DNA of 64,000 bases from Phosphitispora fastidiosa. Lineage in GTDB: Bacteria > Bacillota > Thermincolia > Thermincolales > UBA2595. Position 1 is the stretch's first letter, and each line of letters opens with the position of its first letter. Below are positions 1-15,800 of this stretch, in pieces. Where the stretch lies: contig NZ_JAHHUL010000010.1 in assembly GCF_019008365.1 (NCBI RefSeq), forward strand, positions 1-64,000. Reading direction: 5' to 3'. A model generated the notes under the pieces. That model searched no databases. It was not told the origin of the DNA and saw only the letters and a list, made by a program, of their open reading frames with translations. The position numbers and the translations under genes were made by a program.

Positions 1-432
1 TATCACAAAAGCCAGGGTAACGGCGCGAAGGCCCTGGAATATTACGAAAAATCACTGGCTATATTTGAGGCCCTGGTAGAGCTGGACCCTGACAGTACGG
101 AATATAGGCGGGGCGTGTCTGTAAGCTATGAAAGACTGGGAGATTATCACATGACCCAGGGTAACGGAGCGAAAGCCCAGAAATATTACGAAAAATCTCT
201 GGCTATAAGAGAGGCCCTGGTAGAGCTGGACCCTGACAGTGCGGATTACCGGCGGGGCCTGTCTGTAAGCTATAATCGTATGGGATATTATCACAAAAGC
301 CAGGGTAACGGCGCAAAGGCCCTGGAATATTACGAAAAATCACTGGCTATATTTGAGGCCCTGGTAGAGCTGGATCCTGACAGTGCTGAATACAGGCGGG
401 ACCTGGTAGTATCTTATTGTAAGATGGCTGCT
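1..432 (+). repeat. 144-bp in-frame tandem repeats inside TPR gene
   Basis: Three copies of a 144-bp unit start at 1, 145 and 289. Copies 1 and 3 are almost identical at the DNA level, including third codon positions, over about 110 bases, whereas the TPR units in the gene at 2899 have diverged strongly. This implies recent duplication or ongoing homogenisation. The array may be longer, because the window cuts it. Confidence 0.85.
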
Positions 433-585
433 TATTATAATGAGTCAGATGATGAAGAGCAGGCTGAACGATATTTCAAGGTGTGTTATGAGGCATTGCT
501 GTATATGAAGGAACATGATATGTATATGGACCAGCCGCTTGTTGATTTGCTGGAACAGTTGGAGGGTGATGAGAACGAAAACTGA
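1..585 (+). CDS. TPR-repeat protein, 5' end outside window
   Basis: The reading frame is already open at base 1 and ends at the TGA at 583-585, so this is the C-terminal part of a longer protein (194 residues visible). It consists of about four helical repeats with a 48-residue period and the core pattern GDYxxxQGNxAKALEYYEKS, followed by LVELDPDSxxYRR. These are tetratricopeptide-type repeats, which mediate protein-protein contacts. The last repeat is degenerate and ends in an acidic tail. The next gene overlaps its end by about 17 bases, which points to co-translation with the DUF4062-NACHT ATPase. TPR identity is secure; the partner is not known. Confidence 0.85.
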   Translation, partial: YHKSQGNGAKALEYYEKSLAIFEALVELDPDSTEYRRGVSVSYERLGDYHMTQGNGAKAQKYYEKSLAIREALVELDPDSADYRRGLSVSYNRMGYYHKSQGNGAKALEYYEKSLAIFEALVELDPDSAEYRRDLVVSYCKMAAYYNESDDEEQAERYFKVCYEALLYMKEHDMYMDQPLVDLLEQLEGDENEN

Positions 586-2902
586 TATGGAAGGACGTAA
601 CCGGCCCAAAGCCAAATTAAAACAATGGTATACCCGCCCTGTATTCGTCTCCAGCACATTCCGTGATATGCAGGCAGAGCGTGACTACCTGAATAAAAAC
701 GTATTCCCTGAGTTAGCCGAAAGATTGCGAAAACGGTTTCATTATCTGGAAACCGTCGATCTTCGCTGGGGTGTGGATACATTCGACAAACGAAATCAGG
801 AAGAGAAAGAACTACTGGTGCTAAAACTGTGTCTAAACGAAATTGAGCGCTGCCGCCCATTTCTTATCATCCTCCTGGGTGATCGTTATGGTTGGGTGCC
901 GTCGGAGGACAGAATGAAGGCGGCCATGCAGGAAAAAAACTTTAAAACGGATGTAGACATAAAAGGCAAAAGCGTTACTGCACTGGAAATAGAATTTGGA
1001 GTGTTGGATAGTCCCAAACAGCGGAAACGTAGTTTCTTCTATTTTCGTAACCCTCTGCCATATGCTGCAAAGCCTTTAGAAACAGCTGCCCAGTATAGTG
1101 AAGAATTCAACAACCGGCCCCAGGCAAAAGATGCCAGAGAAAGATTAAAGGGCCTGAAAGAACGGATAAAAAGCGAACTGCCAGGGCAAGTCCGCACTTA
1201 TACGGCCAAATGGGACAGCACTGAAAATGGTATTATGGAGAGTAGTCTTAAGGAATTTGGCAATATGGTATTGGAAGACCTGTGGGGAGCCCTGGACGAG
1301 GAGACTAAGGCCTTAGCTGAGAAGCCTGATACCACCTGGCAGGAACGGGAAAGAAACATATTATCTCAATTTGTCGAAGAAAGGGTTCGCACATTCAAGG
1401 GGCGCAAAGACTTGCTGGATCAACTGGAGGAATTAGCTTTGTCTGCTCCCGGGCGGGAGCATTGGGGCACTGTTATCACAGGTGGTTCCGGGTCAGGGAA
1501 AAGCGCCTTGTTTGCAAAACTGAATGAGCAGCTGGATAAATACGGGTGCATGGTTTTATCCCATGTAGCGGGAGTCAGCCCTGTTTCCTCGTGTATCAGG
1601 GACATGCTGTTACGCTGGATAGAGGAATTATCCGGCTATTTGGAGATTCCTGAGCAGAAACCTGAGACCATGGAAGAAACTAAGACCCTATTTGCCAACC
1701 TGCTCTCAAGGGCAGCGGTTGATAAGAGGGTTGTCTGTCTTCTGGATGCTTTAAACCGGTTTGAGCGGACATCTGCCGCACGGTACATGACATGGTTGCC
1801 GGAAATATGGCCTGAGAATGCCAGGCTGATAGTTACAGCCATACCTGGTGAAGAAACCCGGACTTTGGGAAAACGCCGGGGGTTTAAAGTACAGGAGTTA
1901 CCTCCCCTTAACGAAACAGATACCAGGCAAATAATCGAATCCATAGGTAAACAATACGGAAAGACGATCTCTCCCGATGTAATAAAAGTAATACGGGATA
2001 AGAGGCGGGGTGATCAAACCCCATCCTACAGCAATCCCTTATGGGTGCGAATCATCATAGAAGAACTGCTGTTGTTGGATCAGGATGATTTTGCCGCAGC
2101 AGACCAGTTTACCGGCAACCCTGAGGCCCAGCTACATGCTTTACTCATCAATGTGGCAGAGAAGTTCCCGCCTGAGATAGAAGAAGGGTATGCCTATCTC
2201 CTCAGGCGGGCGGAAAAGAGCTTTGGGGAGGTGTGGGTCAGGGCGGTATTCAGGTTTTTGGCTGCCAGCAGGTATGGACTACGCGAGATTGATCTGCGTA
2301 ACCTGCTGGAAAGGCAGGGTATAAAATGGAACAGCCTGCAGTTTGCCGCTTTGCGCCGGTATATCCGTGCACACCTGATCCAGAGGGGTACGGAGGGTTA
2401 CTGGGACTTTACCCACGACTTGGCTAGGGTAAGCCTGGAAGAGAGATACCTAGCGGATAAACAAGATAGGCTTCGCGTACACAGCCAGGCAGTAGATTAT
2501 CTTGAGACCCTTCAACCGGAAGACCCCCTGCGGCAAAGTGAATTGATGTACCATTACTATATGGCAGATGATAAAATGCGGGCGGCCCGGTATTATGGTG
2601 GAGAGCTACAGGAAGAAGAATTAGCCGGAGCCACCAAGGTTTTAGCAGAGATTATCATTGAGGGAGCAGGAAACAATGTCAATTTCGGTTTGGATTGGGT
2701 AACAGGTTTATTAAAGCAGGATGGTCTGGACAATGATGAAATATATTCAATTTGTGAGAGATATAATTTTGACCTGGCAGAAATAATTAAAGATTACATA
2801 GATATATCAGCACGAATCACTATAATGGACGAAAATAAGCAGGCTTTATACAACCTTACGAATCTGTTGCCTGACGGGAAGATTATGCTGCAGGTCTCTT
2901 GA
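569..2902 (+). CDS. DUF4062-NACHT (STAND-type) ATPase
   Basis: This is a 777-residue protein. Residues about 20-125 match DUF4062: VFVSSTFRDMQAERD, then RWGVDT and LGDRYGWVP, the arrangement seen at the N terminus of NWD1/TEP1-like proteins and of bacterial NACHT signalling ATPases. A P-loop with GGSGSGKSALF lies near residue 303, and a hydrophobic Walker B-like strand, VVCLLDALNRF, near 388, followed by helical NACHT/winged-helix-like sequence. STAND ATPases act as inflammasome-like switches in which a C-terminal repeat array senses and an N-terminal domain signals. The start at ATG 569 uses GGAGG 561-565 with short spacing; ATG 587 is the alternative. The frame stops at 2900-2902 exactly where a TPR frame begins, so the true protein may continue into the next gene. 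Confidence 0.85.
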   Translation: MRTKTDMEGRNRPKAKLKQWYTRPVFVSSTFRDMQAERDYLNKNVFPELAERLRKRFHYLETVDLRWGVDTFDKRNQEEKELLVLKLCLNEIERCRPFLIILLGDRYGWVPSEDRMKAAMQEKNFKTDVDIKGKSVTALEIEFGVLDSPKQRKRSFFYFRNPLPYAAKPLETAAQYSEEFNNRPQAKDARERLKGLKERIKSELPGQVRTYTAKWDSTENGIMESSLKEFGNMVLEDLWGALDEETKALAEKPDTTWQERERNILSQFVEERVRTFKGRKDLLDQLEELALSAPGREHWGTVITGGSGSGKSALFAKLNEQLDKYGCMVLSHVAGVSPVSSCIRDMLLRWIEELSGYLEIPEQKPETMEETKTLFANLLSRAAVDKRVVCLLDALNRFERTSAARYMTWLPEIWPENARLIVTAIPGEETRTLGKRRGFKVQELPPLNETDTRQIIESIGKQYGKTISPDVIKVIRDKRRGDQTPSYSNPLWVRIIIEELLLLDQDDFAAADQFTGNPEAQLHALLINVAEKFPPEIEEGYAYLLRRAEKSFGEVWVRAVFRFLAASRYGLREIDLRNLLERQGIKWNSLQFAALRRYIRAHLIQRGTEGYWDFTHDLARVSLEERYLADKQDRLRVHSQAVDYLETLQPEDPLRQSELMYHYYMADDKMRAARYYGGELQEEELAGATKVLAEIIIEGAGNNVNFGLDWVTGLLKQDGLDNDEIYSICERYNFDLAEIIKDYIDISARITIMDENKQALYNLTNLLPDGKIMLQVS

Positions 2903-2905
2903 TAA
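2895..2905 (+). other. Frame junction between NACHT and TPR reading frames
   Basis: The stop of the NACHT frame (TGA 2900-2902, followed at once by TAA) overlaps a TTG codon at 2899-2901 of the TPR frame. If the ribosome or an ancestral sequence shifted by -1 here, the joined peptide would run PDGKIMLQVS then LISYQRLGDY. The distance from PD to GDY is then the same as in the following TPR unit, so the repeat register is kept exactly. No canonical X-XXY-YYZ slippery heptamer is visible. Confidence 0.6.
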
Positions 2906-4815
2906 GCTATCAAAGGTTAGGAGATTATTACAAAGAGCAGGGAGACCGTATTTCCGCATTGGAATACTATGAAGAGTCATTGGCAATTGAAAAGGATTTT
3001 AACAGAATTAATCCAGATAATCTGAAATATAAACAGTACATGTTTGTGCTTTATATAAAAATAGGCGATTACCGAACGGAACAAGGAGACCGGGTTCACG
3101 CAGTGGAGTGTTATAAGAAGGCATTGGAAATCAATAAGGATCTGTTCCATTCCTCTCCCAATAACGCCAAATATGCAGTGGACCTTTCAATATGTTACCA
3201 AAAACTTGGAGACTTCTATTGTGAATACAGAAATCATGATGCTGTGCTTGAACATTATGAGAAGGCTTTGGAGATAGTTGAGACACTTTTACGCAGTTTT
3301 CCTGACTGTACAGAATACATATTGAACCTGTTGGTAAGTTGTATTAAGCTGGGGGATTTTTACAAACAACTGGGGGATTTTTCTCGTGTAAGGGAGTACT
3401 ATGAAAAGGCTTTAAAAGTCAGTGAAGACCTTCACTGCCGCGTTCCTGACAACATAGAATACCGCCGGAATTTATATTTAAGCTATGAGAGGCTTGGAGA
3501 TTATTACACTATAATGGGAAACCATATCCACGCACAGAAACTGTATGAAAAGTTTTTTCAGGGGATCAAAGAATTGTATCTCTTAGTCCCGGATAGTACA
3601 GTTCATGCACAAGGTTTCTGTGTGGCCTGCACTAAACTCGGAGGGTATAACAGTGAGCAGGGAAACAATGCTTACGCATTGGATTATTTTAAAAAGGCAT
3701 TGAAGATAATTGAAGACCTGTGCCGCCGTGCCCCTGACAGCGCCGAATATTCACGTGGAAGATGGAATGTTCACGGGTTGCTGGGTGACTATTACATTGA
3801 GCGGGGAGACCATGCAGGCAGCCTGGAGCAATATGAGATTTCCTGTAAAATAATTGAAGAACTTTACCAGGGTGCTCCCCAAAATAGAGAATACAAACGA
3901 TCCCGTTCAATGAGTTACAGGAGACTGGGGGAATGTTACACTAAACAGGGAGACTGGAATTGCGCCCGGGACTACTACATGAAGGCTGTGGAGACAGGTG
4001 AGGAACTGTATCGCAGTGCTCCGGACGGCATAATGAATGCAGACAACCTATCAATAATCTACAACAGGGTGGGAGACTATTATTCTGCGCGAAGGGATAA
4101 TGTCCTTGCTATGGAATATTATAAAAAGGATTTGGAAATCAGTGAGGAATTGTATCACAGCGTATCTGAAAGTATAATTTATCCCCGTAATCTATTGATA
4201 AGTTATGAGAGGTTGGGAGATTGTCATTATAAACAGGGGGACCGTGACCAATGCCTGGAACAATACAGGAGATCTTCGCAAATACTTGAAGAACTGCATA
4301 CCCGCTTCCCTGAGAATAAAAATTATGCATATGAACTATCAGAATGTTATAACAAACTAGGAGGTTATTATTCGGAACAGGGGAATAATTCTAAAGCTTT
4401 AGAGTATTATGAAGAGGCTGTGGGAATATTAGAAGGACTGCACCGGCGATTTCCGGATAGCGAAGAATATCCGCGTCTACTGATAGAAACAAGCCATAAT
4501 CTTTTTCAAGAACTAGATAATGATGAAGAAGAACGGTCTTTACATTACCTGGAGATATGTCTTAAGGCAGCTGCACATATGAAGGAATATGGCATGAAAA
4601 TGAATTGGGGATTAATATTACTGTCAAAGCAACTTAAATTAATGCAAATACTTTTTAAAATGATGATAAAGATGAAACCGAAACCACGAGTTAGGGTTAA
4701 TCCTAAAAAAGAAGCCAGGCTAAGTATTAGGTACCAACTGGCTCTAAAAAAATGGGAGGCCCTGCCGTGGTGGAAAAGGATGCTGGATAAAAGACCCAAG
4801 CCGCCAGGCATTTAA
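2899..4815 (+). CDS. TPR array protein, probable C-terminal half of the NACHT ATPase
   Basis: This frame encodes 638 residues made almost entirely of about eleven TPR-type units with a 48-residue period, each carrying a variant of LGDYYxxQGDxxxALEYYEKS. The C-terminal 60 residues leave the repeat pattern and are strongly basic (KPKPRVRVNPKKEARL, then WEALPWWKRML). As written it would start at TTG 2899, overlapping the previous stop and lacking a clear ribosome binding site. It would also begin in the middle of a repeat. Both facts suggest it was, or still is through frameshifting or re-initiation, the sensor half of the upstream DUF4062-NACHT protein. The gene ends 10 bp from a convergent operon. 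Confidence 0.8.
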   Translation: MISYQRLGDYYKEQGDRISALEYYEESLAIEKDFNRINPDNLKYKQYMFVLYIKIGDYRTEQGDRVHAVECYKKALEINKDLFHSSPNNAKYAVDLSICYQKLGDFYCEYRNHDAVLEHYEKALEIVETLLRSFPDCTEYILNLLVSCIKLGDFYKQLGDFSRVREYYEKALKVSEDLHCRVPDNIEYRRNLYLSYERLGDYYTIMGNHIHAQKLYEKFFQGIKELYLLVPDSTVHAQGFCVACTKLGGYNSEQGNNAYALDYFKKALKIIEDLCRRAPDSAEYSRGRWNVHGLLGDYYIERGDHAGSLEQYEISCKIIEELYQGAPQNREYKRSRSMSYRRLGECYTKQGDWNCARDYYMKAVETGEELYRSAPDGIMNADNLSIIYNRVGDYYSARRDNVLAMEYYKKDLEISEELYHSVSESIIYPRNLLISYERLGDCHYKQGDRDQCLEQYRRSSQILEELHTRFPENKNYAYELSECYNKLGGYYSEQGNNSKALEYYEEAVGILEGLHRRFPDSEEYPRLLIETSHNLFQELDNDEEERSLHYLEICLKAAAHMKEYGMKMNWGLILLSKQLKLMQILFKMMIKMKPKPRVRVNPKKEARLSIRYQLALKKWEALPWWKRMLDKRPKPPGI

Positions 4816-4825
4816 TGCCAAGCTT

Positions 4826-5470
4826 TCATCCCTCAAAACTAATATACCCGGCGTACTCCAACTTAAAAATCCGGGTAAACAAAAAGGTAATATACTGTAT
4901 TTTCAAGGGGTCTGCACCGGAGGCGGCCTCTTTTAGTTTGGCAGTGATAAAAGGGAAGCCTTCAATTCTGGTCCTTACAATCATCTCCATATCCTCATTG
5001 CTGAAAGTGTCCACAGGATTGGCGGCAACGGCTTTCAGGACATCATCGGCTAAGGTACCTTGCCAAAATGCCTCCCTGATTTCCTGTAATGTATCTGAAT
5101 CATCTCGGTTGGACTTTTCCAGGAACTTTTCAAATAAAGCCAGGGATTTTCTGCTGATAACTTTTTTAGGACAATCAAGTGGTCTAAGTGAATCTGTGGG
5201 TTCCCCGTCAACCAGGACATTACCGTCAAAATCCCTGGAGATTTCCTGTCCGGCTTTTATGGAGAAATCTGTCCAGCTGTATTTCCTCTTTTTTGTTAGA
5301 TAAGTTATTCCGTCAAGGGTTTCGAAGTACTCAGGCTGGTAGTATAAATTTTGATATGTGTCATAAACAAATAATTTGCCGTGTTTATAGACACAGGCAA
5401 TTACAGGCTCTGAGGAATCGAAATCCAGTATACCGGCCGTTTCTAAGGCAATAACACGCAGTATCGACAT
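4826..5470 (-). CDS. Unknown 214-residue protein, paralogue 1
   Basis: The product is not recognised. It is a 214-residue soluble protein with no signal peptide or membrane segment, with an N-terminal beta-rich half containing YSWTDFSIKAGQEISRDF and a C-terminal helical half containing EMIVRTRIEG. It is the same length as the neighbouring product (5514-6158) and aligns with it along its whole length: WTDxxIKxGQxxSRDxD, a Ser-x-x-x-LxLFxxFLxKxN segment, and EMIVRxRxEGxxFI. The two are therefore a tandem duplicate. It is the last gene of a four-gene minus-strand operon behind the AAA+ ATPase. A GGGGGT ribosome binding site precedes ATG 5470. Tandem paralogues in such islands can be immunity or specificity factors, but nothing in the sequence proves that. 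Confidence 0.75.
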   Translation of the reverse strand: MSILRVIALETAGILDFDSSEPVIACVYKHGKLFVYDTYQNLYYQPEYFETLDGITYLTKKRKYSWTDFSIKAGQEISRDFDGNVLVDGEPTDSLRPLDCPKKVISRKSLALFEKFLEKSNRDDSDTLQEIREAFWQGTLADDVLKAVAANPVDTFSNEDMEMIVRTRIEGFPFITAKLKEAASGADPLKIQYITFLFTRIFKLEYAGYISFEG

Positions 5471-5513
5471 AAATAAACCCCCGCTCGCTCCTGTTGAGAA
5501 ATCGGATTATGGT

Positions 5514-6158
5514 TTATGAAAAAGACAGGTAGTCATTGATTTCCAGCACAAACAACTTCCTGAAGAAATAGTTGATTTCAATAAGCTTATCGTATTTTTC
5601 CGAGTCCAGCAGTTCCTTTATATGGTTAATAATAAAACCCTTTCCCTCAAGTCTGCACCTGACTATCATCTCTTTTTGGAGGTTGGATAAGCCATTGATA
5701 ACGTCATTCTGCACAATTTCTTCTATTTCTTTCCTAAAGAGCCCGTTATGGAATGAAATGGTGAGAGCTTCAACCATATCCTTATGGTTGGAATTGGCTT
5801 TTTTCAAAAACTCATTAAATAACTTCAATGTCACAGTACTCATGGATTTATTATTTACACCGGGCAGTTTCTGAAATGGCTCAGTTTGGATACCGTCTAA
5901 CATAATGTCATAATCATAGTCTCTTGAAACAATCTGGCCTGGCTTTATGGTCAAATCCGTCCATTCATAACGGCCTTCATCAATAACATGTCTTACTGTG
6001 CCGATATAGGATGAATACTCGGCCATTTTAATTATCTCGCCCCTGTTTGTATAAAGGCAAAGGTCATCTTCCCATAATCCACAGGCACTAACCGGTTCGC
6101 TTTCTGCATAGGAGATGAAGAAGGGATATTCTATGGCAATCAGTCTTATATCTTTCAT
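5514..6158 (-). CDS. Unknown 214-residue protein, paralogue 2
   Basis: This is a tandem paralogue of the protein encoded at 4826-5470, with equal length and the same conserved blocks (YEWTDLTIKPGQIVSRDYD, LKLFNEFLKKAN, EMIVRCRLEG, then an ELLDSEKYDKL helix). The two copies have diverged well beyond simple drift at synonymous sites, so the duplication is old and both copies seem to be kept by selection. It lies 43 bp upstream of its paralogue and 45 bp downstream of the 246-residue unknown gene, all on the same strand. No family is recognised and no catalytic motif is visible. Confidence 0.75.
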   Translation of the reverse strand: MKDIRLIAIEYPFFISYAESEPVSACGLWEDDLCLYTNRGEIIKMAEYSSYIGTVRHVIDEGRYEWTDLTIKPGQIVSRDYDYDIMLDGIQTEPFQKLPGVNNKSMSTVTLKLFNEFLKKANSNHKDMVEALTISFHNGLFRKEIEEIVQNDVINGLSNLQKEMIVRCRLEGKGFIINHIKELLDSEKYDKLIEINYFFRKLFVLEINDYLSFS

Positions 6159-6203
6159 TGAAGACAGTCCTTCCCAAAACCGCTGTATTAGTGGTTATGC
6201 ATT

Positions 6204-6944
6204 TTATTCGGTATAGGTGATCATCTTCAGGAATTCAGATTGAGGGCCGAATTCAGAGGTAATTCTTTCTACCAGTTCCTCAAAAGCTGTTTTCCCTTTA
6301 CAGGTCATTCCTTCTATGTACTTAATGTCTATCCTGTCTTCAAACAAAAACTCCGGACGCATGTAGACCGGGAAAAGTTTAAAATATTCCTCCGGGTTAT
6401 CCAGGGAGACGGCGATAAACTCAGCCAGGTATGTACGCCAGTCACTTAGGGCTAATAAGCAGTCACAGGGTTGGAAAGACTCATGCTGCAGCTGGATTTT
6501 TGGCAGGAAATAGGCATTGGGGATAGATTCCACCTGGCTTGTAAACCTTATCTCATACAGCCCGTATATCCAATCAGACTTATGGGGGTAAGCGAAGACA
6601 TAACTATGCATTTCTTCATTGATGCCGGTTGCGGATACCCGGTAATTAAAGCTTATATCTCTTTTCTCAAGCTCGATTATTGACAAGAGGGCTCTGTTTG
6701 CAAGTATTCCGATGACACCTGCCAGGTTTGTATTATGGACAATCCCCATATTTTCTGTCATTTTTCTGCACAAGCTGATATTTTGGCTGTATCTTTGATT
6801 CACAACACTGTCCTGTTTTTTCTCCTGAAGTTCATTCATAATGATGGCGAAGTTTCGTTTGGTTTTACCGGCCTCTTTCTCTCTAGCGAAGGCATCATCA
6901 TCGGCACAGTATTCCAGAAACTTTGTAAGATAAGGTTTAACCAT
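6204..6944 (-). CDS. Unknown protein co-transcribed with AAA+ ATPase
   Basis: The product is a 246-residue protein that I cannot assign to a family. The start at ATG 6944 is chosen because GGGGAGGAG stands at the right distance and because it lies 20 bp after the stop of the ATPase gene; a longer frame exists upstream but would overlap that gene. The N terminus is helical with a charged stretch (REKEAGKTKRNFAI). The middle (RVSATGINEEMHSYVFAY, then IYGLYEIRF) looks beta-rich. Acidic and aromatic residues are frequent and there is no signal peptide. Its position directly behind the ATPase suggests an adaptor or substrate. Confidence 0.7.
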   Translation of the reverse strand: MVKPYLTKFLEYCADDDAFAREKEAGKTKRNFAIIMNELQEKKQDSVVNQRYSQNISLCRKMTENMGIVHNTNLAGVIGILANRALLSIIELEKRDISFNYRVSATGINEEMHSYVFAYPHKSDWIYGLYEIRFTSQVESIPNAYFLPKIQLQHESFQPCDCLLALSDWRTYLAEFIAVSLDNPEEYFKLFPVYMRPEFLFEDRIDIKYIEGMTCKGKTAFEELVERITSEFGPQSEFLKMITYTE

Positions 6945-6963
6945 TGCCGCTCCTCCCCGAAAC

Positions 6964-9216
6964 TTAAAAACCAATCCTGGCAGATGATTCATCAGAACCT
7001 GCCAGTAGTTGTTTGACGTCACTGTCATCATATAAGGCTTCAACATCTGTCAATTTAATCGTAACCAGGTCTTCATGTGTAAAAGAGTTTGCTTTGTAAA
7101 GGCCCATAGAATGTTTAACTTTCAGGCGTTCCGCCAGGTTCCTGGCCAGTCGGCCATTACCAAACTTCTCATTTTTATTTTCCAGGGCAATGGTAAAGAG
7201 CTGATAGATTTTTTCCCGGACACCGTCTTCAAGAACAAATTTTTTGCCCAGACAACTGATAAATATTTCAGTAAGTTCTCCGGCATTATAATCAGGAAAT
7301 TCAATTTTATAAGGAACCCTGTCCTTAAGTCCGGGATTCATTTCCAGAAGCTCACTCATCTCTTTGGTATAACCGGCCATAATAACGATAAAGCGGTCCC
7401 GTTTATCCTCCATTTCTTTAATAAGGGTGCTTAGGGCCTCATAACCGTAATCTCTTTTATCACCATCGGCTCCATACAGACTGTATGCCTCGTCAATAAA
7501 CAGGACAGACCCCTGGGCTTCCCGGATTTTTTCCATCACAAGGGGTGCGGTTTGGCCGACATACCTGCCGACCAGGCTTTCCCTGCCGGCCTCTATCAGG
7601 TCTCCTTTTTTAAGAAAACCAATTTCCCTGAACATATTGCATAGAATTCTGGCTACCGTGGTTTTCCCTGTTCCAGGATTGCCGGAAAACATCATGTGGA
7701 AACAAATGTCACCGGCCTCTGATTCAAGTCCAAGGTCTCGCATTACTTGCTGGAATTTGGCGTATGCCACAATTTCTTTAAGCTTCTCTTTGATGGGAAC
7801 CAAACCGACCAGTGAATCAAGCTGGGCCCAGGCACCGGACTTTGATTTTTCACTGTCCCCGAAGCTTTTGGTAAAATCTTCTGTATTGAGGATTCCCACC
7901 AGGTTTTCACTTTCGTCTTCATTCAGGCGGAAGAGTTTTTCAACACGGGCTGTCTCGATGATTTTCTGAACAGACCGGATGTTCTCAAGTTGTCCGGCCC
8001 GCTGCACTTCCTGGATTTTTTTCAGGAGATATTGTGCTGCATCTTTATCAAAGGCAAAACCGTAACTGTTTAAGATCTTGCCGGCTATAAGCAGCAGTTC
8101 GGTGTCGGAATAAGGCGGAAATTCGATGTGATGGCAGTTAAGGCTTTTCCGGATTTTTTCTATTACATTCTTTTCTATGGGGCTCTTTAGGCCTTTTTCG
8201 AATACCAGGACAAATAATACACGCCCCCGGTAATCCCACATAATATCCATCAGCCTGCTTACATTAAACAGAGGGTCACCCATCTGCCGGGTAATATTAA
8301 TTGCAATAACACTATAATCATCGTCAACCCTGTAAGAGCCGTCTTCATTCCTTGTGAAAACCGTTGATACGTTTTTGTCATTGCTTTGAAAGAAGAGACT
8401 TTCATATTCAATGAAATTAGAGTTTTTGGCCAGACCGAAGTGGTGCAGGTTGGCGGCCAAAATTTTCAGCATTGTGGTCAGCCCCATTCCGGTTCCTATG
8501 GTGAATATATAATGGATTGGGAAAACCCTTTTTTTCTTTTGCTGGTTTTTTAGTTTATTGTTAAGAATAGAGAATTTTTGAATAGCAGCAATTTCTTTTT
8601 TAAAGTCCTTAACTCCAATAAGAGAGTCTAAATGTAACGGCTTCCTGGTATTTTCTGTCTTCTGGTTTGTCTTCTCGTCCGGCTCGTCAAGGCCGTCGAA
8701 TATATCTGAAAGGTCGTCTCCAAATTCCTCTGTAAAATCATCTGTTGATAATTCACCAAACTCATCTTCCTCATCCTCATATTCACCTTCTTCACTGGGA
8801 GAGCCAATAATGGAATAAAGACACTCTCTTTTAAGTTCGTCTGCAAAATTTTTAAAATCCGTAGTCTGAACGATTACTTCGTCCGATTCCACTGTATCCA
8901 GTCGATCCAGACAGTCCTGAGGACTAATGGGTTCAATGATGGCTGTAACGGTTTCCCGCGTGAGAGCGCCGGCCACGGCTGATGCCAATTCGTTGCCAGC
9001 CTTTTCGGCTTCTTCCCGAATTGGTTTCTGTAATTTGCAAAAAAATTGTATTTCGGAAGGGTGAATCTTAACAAGGATGATTATGAGACCCGGATTCTGC
9101 AATTTAAAGGCACTCAGAACCTGACCTATCTCCTGGTGAAACTTGACGAAAGGGCTGTCAGACCGGTCTGCCGGTTTTCTTAATTTGATTTGATAAAAGT
9201 GTGACCCTAATGACAT
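6964..9216 (-). CDS. CbbX/SpoVK-like tandem AAA+ ATPase
   Basis: The product has 750 residues. The C-terminal AAA+ domain (about 480-735) is of the CbbX/SpoVK/EccA type: Walker A GNPGTGKTTVARIL, pore-loop-like GRYVGQTAP, Walker B GSVLFIDEAYSLYG, sensor region FIVIMAGYTKEM and an arginine-finger region NPGLKDRVP. A first AAA-like module (about 200-440) has the degenerate P-loop GTGMGLTT and no clear acidic Walker B, so it may be structural. Residues about 130-195 are very acidic. The start at ATG 9216 has GGAGG in front. It is the first gene of a four-gene operon. Family members remodel protein complexes; the target here is presumably a neighbour. Confidence 0.88.
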   Translation of the reverse strand: MSLGSHFYQIKLRKPADRSDSPFVKFHQEIGQVLSAFKLQNPGLIIILVKIHPSEIQFFCKLQKPIREEAEKAGNELASAVAGALTRETVTAIIEPISPQDCLDRLDTVESDEVIVQTTDFKNFADELKRECLYSIIGSPSEEGEYEDEEDEFGELSTDDFTEEFGDDLSDIFDGLDEPDEKTNQKTENTRKPLHLDSLIGVKDFKKEIAAIQKFSILNNKLKNQQKKKRVFPIHYIFTIGTGMGLTTMLKILAANLHHFGLAKNSNFIEYESLFFQSNDKNVSTVFTRNEDGSYRVDDDYSVIAINITRQMGDPLFNVSRLMDIMWDYRGRVLFVLVFEKGLKSPIEKNVIEKIRKSLNCHHIEFPPYSDTELLLIAGKILNSYGFAFDKDAAQYLLKKIQEVQRAGQLENIRSVQKIIETARVEKLFRLNEDESENLVGILNTEDFTKSFGDSEKSKSGAWAQLDSLVGLVPIKEKLKEIVAYAKFQQVMRDLGLESEAGDICFHMMFSGNPGTGKTTVARILCNMFREIGFLKKGDLIEAGRESLVGRYVGQTAPLVMEKIREAQGSVLFIDEAYSLYGADGDKRDYGYEALSTLIKEMEDKRDRFIVIMAGYTKEMSELLEMNPGLKDRVPYKIEFPDYNAGELTEIFISCLGKKFVLEDGVREKIYQLFTIALENKNEKFGNGRLARNLAERLKVKHSMGLYKANSFTHEDLVTIKLTDVEALYDDSDVKQLLAGSDESSARIGF

Positions 9217-9386
9217 ATTATTCCTCCGCAAAATAATATACATTTTCGTCATTGCACCTAATAATCCTTCCCCAAAAAAGAATTTGTGGAAATATTATGA
9301 AGGTTTTTCTAAGTTGTTGTAGAATTATCCATAATTGGGAAGAGACATTTGTTAAATGAAGAATTCTGAATCGGAGGATTGATGAT

Positions 9387-10394
9387 ATGGCAGCGGAAGA
9401 CATCAGGCCGATGGTTTTTATCAGTGCAAAAAGTGAGGATTTTCCTTACGCCGAAGAAATTTACAAATTCCTGAGGGGTAAGGGGGTTCCTGTCTTTTTC
9501 AGTAGGGAGTCCCTGCCTGCCCTGGGTAACTCCGATTACAGGAAACAAATTGACAAATACCTTGACATGGTTCAGCACATGATAGTTGTAGCAAGCAGTG
9601 TTGACAATGTGCTGTCTCAATGGGTGGAAGGCGAATGGGGATTCTTTATAAATGAGAAGAGGTCGGGACGTAAGGCCGGAAACATTGTTACGGTGATCGT
9701 TGGTTCATTAAATATAAGTGACCTCCCGCCGAGCCTCAGATATTATGAAGTGATACCTTTTGAGGAATCGGATAAAGTATTGAAGTATGTCGTCCAGGAT
9801 GCCTCAACCCATGCGGATATGATGCCGACAAAAGAAAGGGCGACGGAAGAAAAACCGATGCCTGGCACCCTTCAGCCACTGGTTCCCATCAAAAACTTTG
9901 ATTTGGGGTATGTTTACCACGAAAACAGTGATACGTCTTCTATGCAGGTTAGATACTTTAACAGGGGGCCGAGAAAAGCAATGGAACTGGTCCTGGATTT
10001 TCGCCCCAAAACCTTTTACCCGGTCCCGCCCAAATTTGTCGGCTATGCCATAAGGCTGGACCCGCCTGAGGACTGGAGGTGTTTTTTTGACAACGGCTAT
10101 AATCTGAGTTTTGAGATTTGCGCTGATTCAGCCGTAAAGAGTATCAACCTGGAAATTAAGCGGTTATCTGATCCCCGGAATGTAAATTCATTGGAGGAAA
10201 TAGTCAAGTATTCGGTAGAACTGACTGCCCAATGGAGGTGGATCAGTCTTCCTTTGAATGACATTGCTTTTCCTAATACGAAGTGGACACATATCAGGGA
10301 AATTTGTCTCGTGATAACTCCAAATGACCTGGCCGATTACTGTGGGGTAATAAAGGTTGATAATTTGATTCTGTCCAAAGCCCCGAGGAATTAA
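9387..10394 (+). CDS. TIR-domain protein with C-terminal beta-sandwich-like region
   Basis: This is a 335-residue protein. Residues 7-135 form a TIR/TIR-2-like domain: it begins PMVFISAKSEDFPYAEEIY, has FFSRESLPALGNSD, then SSVDNVLSQWVEGEWGFF, where the Glu residues of VEGEW are candidates for the catalytic Glu of NADase-type TIR domains. After a linker (about 138-165) the remaining 170 residues look like a jelly-roll of the CBM11/CIA30 kind, with WRWISLPLND, TKWTHIREICLVI and GVIKVDNLIL, an unusual partner for TIR. A CGGAGG ribosome binding site precedes ATG 9387. It is divergent from the AAA+ operon. Function as an NAD-degrading effector is inference. Confidence 0.8.
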   Translation: MAAEDIRPMVFISAKSEDFPYAEEIYKFLRGKGVPVFFSRESLPALGNSDYRKQIDKYLDMVQHMIVVASSVDNVLSQWVEGEWGFFINEKRSGRKAGNIVTVIVGSLNISDLPPSLRYYEVIPFEESDKVLKYVVQDASTHADMMPTKERATEEKPMPGTLQPLVPIKNFDLGYVYHENSDTSSMQVRYFNRGPRKAMELVLDFRPKTFYPVPPKFVGYAIRLDPPEDWRCFFDNGYNLSFEICADSAVKSINLEIKRLSDPRNVNSLEEIVKYSVELTAQWRWISLPLNDIAFPNTKWTHIREICLVITPNDLADYCGVIKVDNLILSKAPRN

Positions 10395-10424
10395 GCAGGC
10401 GAGTATGAATTAAATAGACTCTTT

Positions 10425-10477
10425 ATAAGCCCTCTGGCCCCGGATGAAATCAGTCCGGATGCAGGGCTTATTTTTTT
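10425..10477 (+). terminator. Rho-independent terminator after TIR gene
   Basis: ATAAGCCCT (10425-10433) pairs with AGGGCTTAT (10463-10471), with an inner TCCGGA-type stem, and is followed by a run of seven T. It closes the TIR gene transcript. Confidence 0.85.
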
Positions 10478-10565
10478 GCGCTTATTTTGTAATGATCAAT
10501 TTCTTGCACAGTAGATATTGTACATTTTTAATAAAGCCGAATTTCTTTAAAAGGAGGTGTTTTTG

Positions 10566-10697
10566 GTGGCCCATTGTTGTCTCTGCAACAACGACAAGGA
10601 CAATATAAACCGCTGCCCGCATTGTGGACGGGTAATCTGTGACAGCTGCTGGGATTGGTATTCGTACTGTAAGTGCAGCAAAGATTTTAAGAAGTAA
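10566..10697 (+). CDS. Small Cys-rich zinc-ribbon protein (43 aa)
   Basis: A strong AAAAGGAGGTG ribosome binding site (10549-10559) precedes GTG 10566. The 43-residue product begins MAHCCLCNND, has CPHCGRVICDSC in the middle and ends CKCSKDFKK. Seven of its cysteines fall in CxxC or CxC pairs that could bind two zinc ions. It lies 23 bp upstream of the secreted-protein gene and may be co-transcribed. The ribosome binding site and composition support a real gene; the function is unknown. Confidence 0.7.
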   Translation: MAHCCLCNNDKDNINRCPHCGRVICDSCWDWYSYCKCSKDFKK

Positions 10698-10720
10698 CAA
10701 ATTGAAAGGAGTGATCTGGT

Positions 10721-12136
10721 TTGAAAAATAAGTACCTGTATCTAGTGGTGGCGGCTCTTCTCATGTTGTTCTCAGTAACAGGTTTTGTATATGCCGAAAC
10801 CTATGAAACAAAGACGTTTAATCCGGGAACACATGTAATTCCAATGGATAATCACCAGGACAACAGGCTTGAGGCATTTGGCCTGGCCCATGCGATTGTC
10901 AGCAATGGAATCCCAATTTTCCGGATTATAGAAGGTCCTGATGTGTCAATGACAACAGTAAACCAGCCTGATGGGGACATCTATTCAGGCGGCCCGATTC
11001 TTGTAGATGGAGACATACCTCCCGATGTGTTAGCTTCATTTTCAACAGTTACTGTAGACACTCTAACAGAATCCTTTACCAGTGACCAGGTTTTCCGGGT
11101 TGAAAGGGCAACAAAAATTATTGTTGTTCACGGTATCTGGGGTCATACCGAAGAAGTACTTGACTGGATGAAAATTCCCTATGAAATGGTTGAGACAGGG
11201 GATATTGAGGCAAATCCTGCAATGCTGGACAGCTATGATGTGCTGGTCATAGACTGCCCAGGTTGGTACGGCATCTCTGCAGATTTGGAAACAAAATTTA
11301 AGGCTTTTGCAGAACAAGGCGGAGAAATAATCTTTACCGATATAGCCTTGGAAAACTTATCTTACCTGTTTCCGGGTTATGTTTCCGTTCAAGGGAACAT
11401 GGATGGCATCTTCGACTTCGATGTTCACAATGTGGGGGAATTTATCAGCCAGTACTATGGTCCGTCAACACTGTCCATTTATACTATGGGTGGTGGATGC
11501 ATAGTTGACCAGGTAATAAGTCCTGAGGTTAGGGTAATACTTAATACAGCCAGTTATGGCGACTGGGATGGGAATACCGGCCTTTACCGTGTTGGAGCCT
11601 TTTACTTTCCCTATGGCAGCGGAATAATTGAGGGGTTTGCCTATCACCCCCAGGAACAGACAGGTGATGCCCAGATCCTCAGTGCAAGTCTGTATGGCAA
11701 CAAGTTTATACATGGGACGGAAAAGCCTGTTGATCCGCCCGTTCCTCCACCTGCAGATGAAAATATACCGGGTAAAGTTACCGGAGGCGGTTGGATAGAT
11801 TCTGAAGATAAGAAGGCAAGCAAGTCCTTTGGTTTTACCGTGAAGTTTAGTGAAGGCGAAATATCGCCAACAGGACAGTTGGAGTTTAATAATCACTTAA
11901 ACGGGGATAAATTCCACAGTGAGGAAATTACCTCATTAGTTATTGACAGGGTTAACAGTATGGCAACAATCAAAGGTACAGGAGTACTGAATGGTTCGTC
12001 AGGACACGAATTCGAAGTCCTCGTGAGTGACATCGGAGAGCCTGGTAATGGCATTGACTTCTTTAAGATTGTCATAGATGGAGAACTGATTGGTGAAAAC
12101 GCATTATCTGGCGGTAACATACAGATTCATAAGTAG
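10721..12136 (+). CDS. Secreted protein with N-terminal ThuA/GATase-like and C-terminal post-COAP-like domains
   Basis: TTG 10721 follows AAAGGAGTG and opens a 471-residue protein with a Sec signal peptide (hydrophobic core LYLVVAALLMLFSVTGF, cleavage after VYA). Residues about 120-240 resemble a flavodoxin/GATase-like fold (KIIVVHGIWG, DSYDVLVIDCPGW, EQGGEIIFTDIAL). After a proline-rich linker, the last 120 residues begin GKVTGGGWI and include GFTVKF, then SDIGEPGNG, the pattern of the extracytoplasmic post-COAP-type domain found at the end of many secreted bacterial proteins. It is probably exported to the cell surface. No enzymatic residue set is evident, so a catalytic role is not claimed. 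Confidence 0.7.
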   Translation: MKNKYLYLVVAALLMLFSVTGFVYAETYETKTFNPGTHVIPMDNHQDNRLEAFGLAHAIVSNGIPIFRIIEGPDVSMTTVNQPDGDIYSGGPILVDGDIPPDVLASFSTVTVDTLTESFTSDQVFRVERATKIIVVHGIWGHTEEVLDWMKIPYEMVETGDIEANPAMLDSYDVLVIDCPGWYGISADLETKFKAFAEQGGEIIFTDIALENLSYLFPGYVSVQGNMDGIFDFDVHNVGEFISQYYGPSTLSIYTMGGGCIVDQVISPEVRVILNTASYGDWDGNTGLYRVGAFYFPYGSGIIEGFAYHPQEQTGDAQILSASLYGNKFIHGTEKPVDPPVPPPADENIPGKVTGGGWIDSEDKKASKSFGFTVKFSEGEISPTGQLEFNNHLNGDKFHSEEITSLVIDRVNSMATIKGTGVLNGSSGHEFEVLVSDIGEPGNGIDFFKIVIDGELIGENALSGGNIQIHK

Positions 12137-12141
12137 AGCTG

Positions 12142-12176
12142 AAAGGGGACGGAGGATGATGCCTGTGTCCCCTTTT
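12142..12176 (+). terminator. Probable terminator after secreted-protein gene
   Basis: AAAGGGGAC (12142-12150) and GTCCCCTTT (12167-12175) form a 9-bp stem, but only a short T-run follows, so it is a weak candidate. Confidence 0.5.
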
Positions 12177-12219
12177 CGAAGACCATAATATTATAGCTTA
12201 ATAAATGGGAGTGGGATTT

Positions 12220-12633
12220 ATGAAGGAATGTATTTTCTGTGACATCCTATCGCAGCACAAGTCAAATCCAAATTTTATTCTTGAACAAAAGTCGAGCATT
12301 GCTTTTGTTAACCTGGACCAATTTTATTTGGGGCGCACAGTAGTAATATTTAAAAGACATACAACCGAATTCGATGAGCTTAATCCTGTTGAGCGTTTAG
12401 ATTTAACTGAAGAGATGGTTATGGTAGCTAAAGCTGTAAAGAAGGCTTTTAGCCCTAAAATGATTAATTATGCCATTCTAGGAAATGTACAAGAACACTT
12501 GCATTGGCATATCATCCCGAGATATCATGATGATGCCAATCTTGAGGGACCACCTTGGCCTCATTCACGTAAATTTGTTACCCCGAAGGAGTATGCGGAA
12601 ATTGCAAATGTAATATTGCAGCATATTCAATGA
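12220..12633 (+). CDS. HIT-family nucleotide hydrolase/transferase
   Basis: The product has 137 residues. The histidine-triad motif HLHWHIIPR near residue 95 (HxHxH) is complete, and the N terminus has the CIFCDIL motif typical of the family. HIT proteins hydrolyse or transfer phosphoramidate- and dinucleoside polyphosphate-linked nucleotides through a covalent histidine intermediate. ATG 12220 is chosen because GGGAG stands 8 bp upstream; an ATG at 12205 in the same frame lacks a ribosome binding site. It is monocistronic as far as can be seen. Confidence 0.9.
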   Translation: MKECIFCDILSQHKSNPNFILEQKSSIAFVNLDQFYLGRTVVIFKRHTTEFDELNPVERLDLTEEMVMVAKAVKKAFSPKMINYAILGNVQEHLHWHIIPRYHDDANLEGPPWPHSRKFVTPKEYAEIANVILQHIQ

Positions 12634-12890
12634 AAGTCTTATTTAACCATTGCCCTTAGTGTTCAATAATCTATGACTAATCTGGAAATTAATGTCGGAT
12701 AATGTCTAAATATTACGACGAATTAGCAACCTGTTTTGGCAGGAGATTGTCTATTAGTATTGAAGATAAGAACAAATAATGGGAAAAAAGACATAGTTTG
12801 CAAAAAAAGATATTAAATGAAAAAAGAAACAGATTGCAAATAAGTCATGTACATATGTGTGTTATAAAATTAATGGGAGGGATAGGTGAT

Positions 12891-15800
12891 ATGAAGAACA
12901 ATACGACGTTGTTTATTTTGCTATTGCTAATATGTGTATTGTTTAACCTTAACTTTGCTATTTCCATAGCGGAGGCTTCTATCGATTCTAATGCTGCCGG
13001 TAATATAACGGTTGTTTCGTTCAATGACAGCAACCTAGAAGCCGCTATAAGGGAAATGCTTGGCAAGCCTACAGGCGATATAACAACAGAGGACATGGCT
13101 GAACTTTCAGTTTTGGATCCAGTGGGATGCGGAATTCAGGACCTAACCGGTCTTGAATATGCAATTAATTTGCGGGAACTTGACTTGTCGGGTAATAATA
13201 TTGCAGATATTAGTTCTTTAGAGGGTTTGACCAAATTGGCTGACCTTGATTTGGAATCAAACCAAATTTGTGATATTTCTTCTCTGGCAGATTTGTCTAA
13301 CTTATGGAGATTAGATTTAGATAATAACCAAATCTCTAATTTAACACCACTTTCCGGGCTTAACAACCTTCATAGTCTCCGCCTAATATCCAACAGTATT
13401 ACTGACGTAACCCCCTTAACCGGTTTGACAAATCTTTGTTATCTTGACCTGGATAATAATTTAATTAATAATATTTCTCCATTGGCTGACCTTTTTAATC
13501 TTGAAGAACTTAGCCTGGCGAACAACCAAATAAGCAACGTAGCTGATTTGTCGGAATTGGCAAGCTTAACGCACCTTTATCTGGAAAATAATGAGATTAG
13601 CGATGTTTCTTCCCTTAGCAGTCTAACTAATTTAGATACTCTCTATCTAAGTAATAACCAAATATCAAATATTAATCCCATATCAAGCCTAATAAATTTA
13701 CGGAAGCTTCTTTTAGCTGATAATGAAATTGAAGAATTAGATCCAAATATTATCATAGGACTTACTCATCTCAGGTATTTAGATATAAGAAACAACTTTA
13801 TTGATATTGAAGACGAAGAGATAGAGGATATGCTGGATGACTTATATTGGAACGGAGTGATTGTTGACTATGAACCCCAAAAGGAATTTGACGAAGATTT
13901 GAGAGTGCCTGTTCATTTGGAATGGGAAAAGTATATTGAAGGAACGGGTGACAAATATCCCTTAGTATTTAAAAAAACTTCAGACGGTGGTTATGCAGTT
14001 CTCGCTTACATGTACAACATAAATACTGGGCATGATGACTATCATTTAATAAAGATTAACAGTGACGGAAGTAAAAAGTGGGATGTCATTATCCAGGGAC
14101 GGTTTAACAGCATGTACAATCCTATTTTGCAGACAGATGACGGGGGTTTTATTGTTGTTGGCAGTAAAAGCAGCCAGGATAATACAGACTCTCAGGCATA
14201 CATAATTAAAATTGATGACCAAGGTAACATTCAATGGGATGCAGAATTGGAAAAGCAGGGTGAATTTGATAACGCCACATCTGCAGCACAAATCAATAAC
14301 GGCAACTTTGTTATTGCTGCAGAGTATTCGATAACTTCGTACCCGTGGGTGGCTACCCGTTTGTTAATATTGGATCCTTTAGGAAATCAAATTGAAGAAA
14401 CAGTTTTACAAGGAATTGAGGGTTGGGCAGTACATAAAACTGCCGATGGAGGGTTTGTGGTTGCAGGTACTGCTGTAATCCTAAATAGTAGCCAATCTGA
14501 TACCTGTGATGTATGGCTGGCTAAATTTGATGACACTGGGGAAATTCTCTGGGAGCAGACCTATCCAAGATTTGAAGATGAACTTGCTGCCAGAGTAATT
14601 GCCACGGATGACGGCGGGTATATTTTAGGGGGGATAACATCAATATCTGGAATGGCAGAGTTTTCTAATGATATTTTTATAAAAAAAGTGGATAGTACCG
14701 GCGAACAAGAATGGGAGGAAATATATGGGGGCGAGGGAACTGATTGGTTGCATGATATCAGGGAAATCGATGAAGGTTATGTTGTTACAGCGGATATTGA
14801 ATATTCACCTTCATTTTTAAAAACAGATTGTTTTGGTTACGTGACAGAGGAAATGGTAATTGACCGGTCTGAAGGTATTTCGTTAGGTGTATTTAATGCC
14901 GACGAGACTTTAATGGGAATCGGATATGATTCTGAGGTTGTCCTGCTTGTTCTGAAGAAATACAGCATTGGTGATGGGAATGCCGGACTTTTTGATGTGT
15001 CCGGAAGGGTGACTTCAGGTGGTTTGGGAGTGCCTGACATAGAGATGGGGTTTTCGGTAATTTCCGGAAACGGTGAAGTTCCTGCCAATGTTTATACTGA
15101 TGATTCCGGTAACTGGACACAGACTGGGTTTGACCCAAACACAGCGTACAGGGTTCAGCCTGTTAGTGATGCTTACAGTTTTACCCCTGAGTATATCGAC
15201 TTTACCGATGGTAATAGCAGCTTAGATTTTACGGCTGAAGAGCAGGCTTTTACCGGTTCTGTTAAAATAACAGACATGATTCCCTCTTATAATGATGGCC
15301 CTGATGTGTTTTTCACAAAAGAATTTACTGTGGAATACCAGGGTGGAACAGTATGGTTATCAGATACCCCTGATGGATCAGGAGGTGTTTGGGTACTTGA
15401 TACCATTGAAATAGCTGTTACACATGAGGATGGAACTACAGCTAATTTCTCCCGTTTGGTATGGGGGACAGAGGAATATCCTAAACCGGCTATTGATATA
15501 ACAAACCTTTTTACTTATGGCAGAAATGATATAGTAGTTACCCTGAAAAAATTTTATGACGGTCCGAAAGGGTCAAGCAGTTTATGGATGACCTCTTTAA
15601 TCCCACATACAAAACTTGAAGGTTTGCCTTCCCGAATCACCTTATTCCCTTCTGAAGAAATAAATTTATCAGGTAAAATTGTTTCTGAGAGTCAAATTGA
15701 AAAAGTAACAGTCATTTTTGTCAGGAATGATACAGGGGAAGCAGAACCGCCATACAGCACATTTCCAGAAAACACAAGCGAATTTGACCTTAGCGAAATC

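What the first reader, a model, noticed from the sequence alone, without database searches (positions are those of the whole stretch)
1..10394. Candidate uncharacterised conflict or signalling island: DUF4062-NACHT/TPR, AAA+ operon and TIR
Seen: a DUF4062-NACHT ATPase with TPR arrays, a convergent four-gene operon (CbbX-like AAA+, unknown 246 aa, two unknown 214-aa paralogues) and a divergent TIR protein, packed with small gaps and flanked downstream by a terminator. Known: NACHT/STAND ATPases and TIR NADases are core parts of bacterial anti-phage defence; DUF4062 is a recurring N-terminal domain of such ATPases. Inference: the two arms form one system in which NACHT-TPR senses, TIR is effector, and the AAA+ with its three unknown partners remodels or restrains a complex. 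I do not recognise this gene set as a named system.
Basis: partly seen in the sequence, partly recalled or inferred. Interest (0 to 1): 0.75.

Follow-up and report, generated by a model that had tools for sequence, protein, structure and literature searches.

The report
Bacterial NAD-cutting immune island, orphan operon
The window begins inside a stretch of bacterial DNA rich in predicted anti-virus alarm proteins that probably act on the coenzyme NAD, and among them sits a set of four genes, three of them with no relatives found, whose job is still unknown.

Summary
The window starts at a contig edge, and the end of contig C7 overlaps it by 53 exact bases in frame. The leftmost gene is therefore probably the tail of a TIR-NACHT-TPR protein (up to 976 aa), overlapped by DUF4062-NACHT-TPR, whose frame is interrupted near 2870-2880. 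DUF4062 was recently reported (preprint) as a TIR-like NADase (Swarozyc; human TEP1). Ours matches the solved TEP1 TIR (E 1.3e-20) and keeps the aligned Glu, so it is predicted to be sensor and effector in one. C7 adds another TIR-NACHT-TPR, a third TIR, TrkA-RyR, SLATT-like and RelA-SLOG-RyR genes: a ~33-kb island. In a same-family genome the same TrkA-RyR/SLATT-like pair (80%/83% identical) lies beside DUF4062-NACHT-TPR instead of TIR-NACHT-TPR. The AAA+/246/214/214 operon: no relatives of the three small proteins were found, and in 22 other DUF4062 loci of the phylum the fetched flanks hold neither a CbbX-like AAA+ nor a TIR gene. 'One system' is unsupported. The AAA+ belongs to the CbbX/SpoVK/EccA clade of dedicated chaperones, with a degenerate first module; its client is unknown.

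The parts
1..585 (+). C-terminal TPR repeats of a TIR-NACHT-TPR gene that begins on contig C7 (about C7:141965)
   Evidence: Contig edge; 53-bp exact suffix-prefix overlap with the end of C7, same reading frame; the only match of this stretch outside C10 is that contig end, 82% identical; TIR_2, NPHP3_N/NACHT, TPR on the C7 part
569..2902 (+). DUF4062-NACHT part of a STAND protein: predicted TIR-like NADase plus NACHT ATPase (Walker A GGSGSGKS); ATG 569 overlaps the previous stop by 17 bp
   Evidence: Pfam; TEP1 TIR crystal chain 11gz_A, E 1.3e-20, residues 17-239; aligned Glu and Walker A; start read. My searches used 578-2899 or 578-2902, three codons short of the ATG
2875..4815 (+). TPR array in another frame; probably the C-terminal half of the same gene, frame break near 2870-2880 (the ORF as listed starts at TTG 2899)
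   Evidence: intact single-ORF relatives of 1068 aa (L062) and 1212 aa (L075)
4826..5470 (-). 214-aa orphan protein a (beta-rich N half, helical C half in a low-confidence model)
   Evidence: no relatives
5514..6158 (-). 214-aa orphan protein b, paralogue of a
6204..6944 (-). 246-aa orphan protein (GGAGG upstream of ATG at 6944; the longer 280-aa reading is less likely)
   Evidence: no relatives
6964..9216 (-). 750-aa tandem AAA+ of the CbbX/SpoVK/EccA clade: own N-terminal region with acidic linker, degenerate module 1 (GTGMGLTT, VLFVLVFE), intact module 2 (GNPGTGKT, VLFIDEAY, AGY)
9217..9386 (.). 170-bp divergent intergenic region between the AAA+ operon and the TIR gene
9387..10394 (+). TIR protein with an unassigned C-terminal region (CBM30/CBM11 below cut-off)
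10425..10478 (+). terminator-like stem-loop with T run
   Evidence: read by eye; the pattern scan lists a smaller stem here, and finds 20 sites in 1-12800 against a shuffled mean of 11.8

Best explanation
Positions 1-4815 are the end of a two-gene operon of NLR-like (STAND) immune proteins, TIR-NACHT-TPR followed by DUF4062-NACHT-TPR, at the right-hand side of a ~33-kb TIR/STAND island. Proposed mechanism: the TPR array binds a phage-made trigger (inferred), the NACHT ATPase oligomerises (inferred from family), and the clustered TIR or DUF4062 domains cleave NAD+ (activity reported for family members in a preprint, not tested here), so the infected cell stops growing and/or ADP-ribose-type products signal to RyR-domain neighbours (inferred). 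The DUF4062 gene may be inactive in this strain because its frame is interrupted before the TPR array. The AAA+/246/214/214 operon is most likely a separate unit: a dedicated chaperone of the CbbX/SpoVK/EccA clade with a pseudo-ATPase first module, acting on its own operon partners as clients or adaptors (inferred). The divergent TIR gene is one more TIR protein of the island; a functional link to the AAA+ operon is possible but unsupported.
For: DUF4062-NACHT matches TEP1 TIR and keeps the Glu that aligns to the second Glu of VTEMEV in TEP1, which by counting I take as the paper's E1008. PMC13174449 (abstract, text up to the vault cryo-EM section, Discussion): DUF4062 is a TIR-like NADase family, antiphage when expressed in E. 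coli, and lies next to NACHT in TEP1/NWD1/NWD2/NPHP3. Contig join. C7 content. Same-family G186: TrkA-RyR 80% and SLATT-like 83% identical to the C7 pair but next to DUF4062-NACHT-TPR rather than TIR-NACHT-TPR. Rhodococcus plasmid: DUF4062-STAND-TPR (27% identity over residues 22-695 of 774) with two TIR genes within 8 kb. AAA+ clade and its 'dedicated chaperone' theme: and PMC10659427 (abstract and passages). Separateness of the AAA+ operon.
Against: No defence or enzyme activity was or could be tested. In PMC13174449 only TEP1 of the four purified human DUF4062-NACHT proteins hydrolysed NAD+; NWD1, NWD2 and NPHP3 did not, so the architecture does not guarantee activity. No PADLOC model fits the DUF4062-NACHT protein (best E 0.046). 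NACHT (23.0 vs 26.7 bits) and nSTAND1 (25.0 vs 27.1) are just under Pfam cut-offs; AAA_16 is over. The join of C7 and C10 lies in repeats, so repeat number is unknown. The tail of the NACHT frame shows no TPR similarity beyond chance, so the break point is not fixed, and a plain two-gene reading (TTGA overlap) is not excluded. The short gaps (10 bp, 170 bp) and the position of the AAA+ operon between NADase genes are what one would see if it did belong to the system.
Confidence: 0.62

Rival explanations
1. One reading: all genes of 1-10394 are one system in which NACHT-TPR senses, TIR is the effector, and the AAA+ with its three partners remodels or restrains the complex.
For: Tight packing and convergent/divergent arrangement; AAA+ clade members are dedicated chaperones of single targets (PMC10659427); the AAA+ has an unusual degenerate module.
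Against: 0 of 22 other DUF4062 loci of the phylum have a CbbX-like AAA+ or TIR gene in the fetched flanks; the TIR gene and the small proteins have no full-length relatives that could show co-inheritance; DUF4062 is itself a predicted NADase (PMC13174449).
Confidence: 0.13
2. Only the TIR gene and the divergent AAA+ quartet form a unit: the AAA+ chaperone and its 246/214 partners hold the TIR NADase in check or load it on phage structures; the STAND operon is independent.
For: Divergent pair with 170 bp between; neither seen in the other 9 class genomes searched (TIR; N-terminal AAA+, where only SpoVK-type matches appear).
Against: No second example exists; the AAA+ clade has other roles (sporulation, secretion, metabolism; PMC10659427); the only inverted repeat found in the intergenic region is the two ribosome-binding sites.
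Confidence: 0.2
3. The AAA+ quartet is a secretion, cell-envelope or other cellular chaperone unit that merely sits in a defence island.
For: Other proteins with two CbbX-type modules include one next to a type VII secretion eccC gene (L038) and a Pontibacillus plasmid protein without defence-named neighbours; clade roles in envelope and secretion (PMC10659427).
Against: Not found in the genus or family, which is unlike housekeeping.
Confidence: 0.25

Closest known systems
Swarozyc (DUF4062 TIR-like NADase defence; PMC13174449, preprint 2026)
   Same: DUF4062 domain with the aligned catalytic-type Glu
   Different: NACHT-TPR in place of the short portal-binding auxiliary domain; operon with TIR-NACHT-TPR
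Human TEP1 / NWD1 / NWD2 / NPHP3 (DUF4062-NACHT)
   Same: Domain order DUF4062-NACHT; TEP1 TIR is the best solved match
   Different: TPR where TEP1 and NWD proteins have WD40; bacterial; only TEP1 of the four is reported active
CbbX / SpoVK / EccA clade of AAA+ chaperones (PMC10659427)
   Same: C-terminal module 38-48% identical in the listed matches; GY sensor-1 signature, intact Walker motifs
   Different: Second, degenerate AAA+ module; own N-terminal region; operon with three orphans
Thoeris (TIR + ThsA)
   Same: TIR proteins with weak ThsB-model matches
   Different: No SIR2 match among the proteins scanned
IetAS-type AAA+ (PADLOC IetA; NCBIfam anti-phage ATPase)
   Same: AAA+ match, PADLOC E 5.7e-9, NCBIfam E 4.5e-7
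   Different: 29.4 bits against a cut-off of 510; far weaker than SpoVK/CbbX; a general AAA+ resemblance

Membership tests
DUF4062 TIR-like NADases (Swarozyc) | DUF4062 domain over the curated cut-off | tested here: met
   46.0 bits vs 24.7; TEP1 TIR chain E 1.3e-20
DUF4062 TIR-like NADases (Swarozyc) | conserved catalytic Glu | tested here: met
   Glu 137 of the translation from 578 (140 from ATG 569) aligns with the second Glu of TEP1 VTEMEV; equating that with the paper's E1008 rests on my counting
DUF4062 TIR-like NADases (Swarozyc) | short C-terminal HTH/winged auxiliary domain that binds the phage portal (KpSwz) | tested here: not met
   the rest of the protein is NACHT and TPR; so filed with the domain family, not with KpSwz-type Swarozyc
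DUF4062 TIR-like NADases (Swarozyc) | NADase and antiphage activity | not testable with these tools
   wet-lab only
STAND/NACHT immune ATPases | P-loop NACHT-type NTPase with superstructure repeats | tested here: met
   AAA_16 34.3 vs 32.6 bits; Walker A GGSGSGKS; NACHT and nSTAND1 slightly below cut-off; TPR array in the next frame
CbbX / SpoVK / EccA equivalogs | NCBIfam equivalog cut-off | tested here: not met
   SpoVK 309.7 vs 422.95, CbbX 270.9 vs 459.25, EccA 214.3 vs 466.65 bits; same clade, not the same protein
CbbX/SpoVK/EccA higher clade | GY in sensor-1, intact Walker A/B in the active module | tested here: met
   MAGYTKEM, GNPGTGKT, VLFIDEAY; clade signature from PMC10659427; its Asn and arginine-finger signatures were not checked position by position
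Thoeris | ThsB TIR plus ThsA-type effector operon | tested here: inconclusive
   weak ThsB-model matches only; no SIR2 match among proteins scanned
Named PADLOC systems | complete gene set of one system | tested here: not met
   18 island translations scanned (8, 5 of the 8, 5); only single-protein matches, best PDC-S33 E 4.6e-16 (RelA-SLOG-RyR), WYL, mad2 (methyltransferase), SAVED_TIR, IetA. DefenseFinder was not available

The most novel reading that the evidence does not exclude
TIR-NACHT-TPR and DUF4062-NACHT-TPR are interchangeable NAD+-cleaving sensors that drive a shared membrane effector: a TrkA (RCK)-type channel-like protein whose C-terminal RyR domain is gated by ADP-ribose or cyclic ADP-ribose, with a SLATT-like partner. 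Phage RyR-domain (PF02026) proteins were recently reported to bind or cut cADPR signals (PMC13232231, preprint). RyR genes lie near 3 of 6 other DUF4062 loci with a NACHT/STAND P-loop but 0 of 18 other DUF4062 loci. A further, weaker reading (about 0.1): the AAA+ quartet is a new kind of safety module for the TIR NADase.
Probability: 0.27. Interest if true: 0.75.

Novelty: new variant of a known kind. Interest (0 to 1): 0.5.

Why it matters
If right, bacteria hold DUF4062-NACHT proteins of the same layout as human TEP1, NWD1 and NPHP3, in tandem with TIR-NACHT relatives and near RyR-domain membrane proteins. That would make a bacterial counterpart of NAD-derived signals gating ion channels testable with a small gene set. 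The orphan AAA+ quartet is a candidate dedicated chaperone with unknown clients.

Tried and rejected
Relatives of the 246/280-aa protein: 1 of 299 phylum genomes, itself; plasmids none; viral contigs none; PDB none; it was not scanned in genome contigs. Relatives of the 214-aa pair (alignment A1): 1 of 9 family genomes, itself; 2 of 299 phylum genomes, itself and G163, where E 1.4e-4 falls in a PAS/GGDEF-like sensor protein (judged by eye) and is taken as chance; genome contigs and viral none; 214a in plasmids none; PDB nothing under E 0.5. AAA+: genome contigs none, a weak test because it needs shared short peptides; 266 of 299 phylum genomes match, but in the capped list every match other than its own lies within residues 402-746, the C-terminal part (SpoVK-type); plasmids 274 records, none covering 80%; N-terminal 450 aa in phages none. 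TIR protein: 1 of 10 class genomes, itself; 6 of 348 phylum genomes, the five others weak and partial; plasmids none. The 246, 214 and AAA+ proteins have no phmmer match at E 1 in the 22 other DUF4062 loci, C7, the two plasmid loci or four G222 loci.

Structure: the 214-aa model has mean pLDDT 54 and no convincing match (Foldseek best E 0.11; VIA best Z 3.9); the 246-aa model is useless at 37 (39). These absences say nothing about fold novelty.

Considered and dropped: chance reading of the small ORFs (paralogy, ribosome-binding sites and codon-position GC support genes); Rfam RNA in 1-12800 (0 matches); PHROGs (only E 0.013 and 0.081 for 246 and the AAA+ N-terminus); a shared operator between AAA+ and TIR. 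The four-seed TIR profile found all 3 seed-derived and 6 non-seed TIR proteins in the set (C7, Rhodococcus, G222) already in its first pass, and none in the 22 other DUF4062 loci, so its zero has some weight; several flanks are cut by contig ends (for example L063, L100, L114, L117).

The count was chosen after seeing the data. The NACHT of G331 rests on my iterated profile; Pfam gives only E 0.07-0.18 there and no match in the larger ORF.

That SLATT/RyR/SLOG parts were predicted to be nucleotide-signal effectors in a 2015 comparative-genomics paper is recalled; that paper could not be opened. A SLATT remark of that kind was seen in passages of PMC7159879.

Full report
1. What is there. The window is the first 64 kb of contig C10 of a 239-contig, 4.09-Mb genome; a class-wide search reached only 10 held genomes. 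All genes named in the finding exist. Gaps in the minus-strand operon are 19, 45 and 43 bp; the AAA+, 246 and TIR genes have clear GGAGG-type sites; the two 214-aa proteins are 31% identical paralogues.

2. The left edge. The first TPR stretch (1-585) is cut by the contig end. In the genome its only match outside C10 is the end of contig C7, 82% identical. C7 and C10 share a 53-base exact suffix-prefix overlap and the frame carries through, 782 codons on C7 plus 194 in the window. The C7 part reads TIR (66.9 bits), NPHP3_N (93.5 bits) and NACHT, TPR. So the gene is TIR-NACHT-TPR of up to about 976 aa, depending on its start. It is 50% identical over residues 2-556 to a second TIR-NACHT-TPR of 964 aa further left on C7. 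The join sits in repeats, so the repeat number is not certain.

3. The DUF4062 gene. It probably starts at ATG 569 and overlaps the previous stop by 17 bp, an operon-like arrangement. Its first 240 residues match the solved TEP1 TIR chain 11gz_A, E 1.3e-20, and the Glu of SVTALE aligns with the second Glu of TEP1 SVTEME. The TPR half is in another frame: TPR similarity starts at 2875, upstream of the listed TTG (score 111 against a shuffle maximum of 48), while the tail of the NACHT frame is not similar to TPR beyond chance by the same test (27; shuffles mean 22.9, maximum 39), so the exact point is not fixed. Intact single ORFs exist in G186 (1068 aa) and Rhodococcus (1212 aa). A frame break is the likeliest reading; a two-gene reading is not excluded. 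DUF4062 genes in G096 and G331 also look interrupted.

4. The island. On C7, left to right (from L128 and L061): TIR 407 aa (121496), methyltransferase, TrkA-RyR 597 aa (123840), SLATT-like 600 aa (125669), TIR-NACHT-TPR 964 aa (127516-130407), a WYL regulator, a transposase (IS110-like by eye, not searched), two proteins of unknown function, RelA_SpoT-SLOG-like-RyR 864 aa (137813-140407, minus), a methyltransferase, and the TIR-NACHT-TPR that runs into the window (141965). SLOG (22.0 vs 25.4 bits) and the SLATT-type assignments are below Pfam cut-offs. With 1-10394 this spans about 33 kb.

5. What travels with what. PF13271 in the phylum: 23 of 398 genomes, 20 over the cut-off, own included. 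I fetched flanks of all 22 others (for 20, for G186 and G096). TIR genes: 0 of 22. CbbX-like AAA+, 246 or 214 relatives: 0 of 22. RyR-domain genes: 2 of 22, G186 and G331. Two plasmid relatives were found. Rhodococcus has a protein with hydrophobic N-terminal segments and a weak RyR match (17.5 bits, cut-off 27.4; BLAST 42% identity to the C7 RyR domain) and two TIR genes; Chloroflexota has neither by my profiles. DUF4062 proteins with a NACHT/STAND P-loop are, besides our own, G186, G331 (profile only), G173 (DUF4062 below cut-off), G212 (weak P-loop), Rhodococcus and Chloroflexota. RyR is near 3 of these 6 and near 0 of the other 18 loci; about 0.01 by hand, chosen after seeing the data. In G186 the RyR and SLATT-like proteins are 80% and 83% identical to those on C7, yet the third gene is DUF4062-NACHT-TPR there and TIR-NACHT-TPR here. 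This swap is the best evidence that TIR and DUF4062 do the same job.

6. Function. PMC13174449 (preprint; abstract, text up to the vault cryo-EM section, Discussion) reports DUF4062 as a TIR-like NADase family, antiphage when expressed in E. coli, and active in human TEP1 where it lies next to NACHT; the human NWD1, NWD2 and NPHP3 proteins were inactive in the same test. PMC13232231 (preprint; abstract and passages) reports phage RyR-domain proteins that cleave or sequester 2'/3'cADPR. From these I infer: trigger on TPR, NACHT assembly, NAD+ cleavage, then growth arrest by NAD+ loss and possibly signalling to RyR membrane proteins. The TrkA-RyR protein of C7 has two hydrophobic segments before its TrkA-N domain; its G186 orthologue shows one at the same threshold; the RyR protein of G331 shows none. 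None of this was tested.

7. The AAA+ operon. Module 2 is closest to SpoVK and CbbX, with intact motifs. Module 1 aligns with SpoVK-type proteins at 25-29% but has lost Walker A and B, whereas both modules of the Pontibacillus relative look intact (sequence). PMC10659427 (preprint; abstract and passages) describes this clade as chaperones for narrow targets. The 246 and 214 proteins were not found elsewhere in 299 phylum genomes each, plasmids (246 and 214a), viral contigs or the genome-contig scan (214 only). In 15 fetched loci, ten of them around other CbbX-type genes of the phylum, no relative was seen either. With one example, linkage to TIR or NACHT cannot be judged; I rate it low to moderate.

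8. Novelty. NADase and STAND defence proteins are a known kind. The tandem of TIR-NACHT and DUF4062-NACHT and the RyR association did not turn up as a described system in searches of open-access papers (listings, plus the passages named above); most subscription papers are not held. I therefore call it a new variant of a known kind.

Noticed in passing
L062 (G186:C13) and L128 (G000:C7): Conserved TrkA-RyR plus SLATT-like pair (80% and 83% identical) next to DUF4062-NACHT-TPR in one genome and TIR-NACHT-TPR in the other: a sensor swap on a shared cassette.
   Followed up: yes
L063 (G096), L112 (G331): DUF4062 genes whose frames also look interrupted, as in the window; decay, phase variation or assembly error.
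   Followed up: partly
L061:7814-10408: 864-aa RelA_SpoT-SLOG-like-RyR fusion, PADLOC PDC-S33 match E 4.6e-16.
   Followed up: partly
L038 (Streptomyces plasmid): Beta-helix-annotated protein with two CbbX-type AAA+ modules near a type VII secretion eccC gene.
   Followed up: partly
L120, L125, L126 (G222:C9): Three similar 750-784-aa proteins with an internal TIR domain within about 11 kb.
   Followed up: no
12798-20684: 2628-aa secreted-looking protein with leucine-rich, PKD-like and YD/RHS-like repeats (by eye), followed by SLH-type proteins.
   Followed up: no
about 10566-10697: Small Cys-rich, zinc-ribbon-like ORF just after the island (by eye).
   Followed up: no
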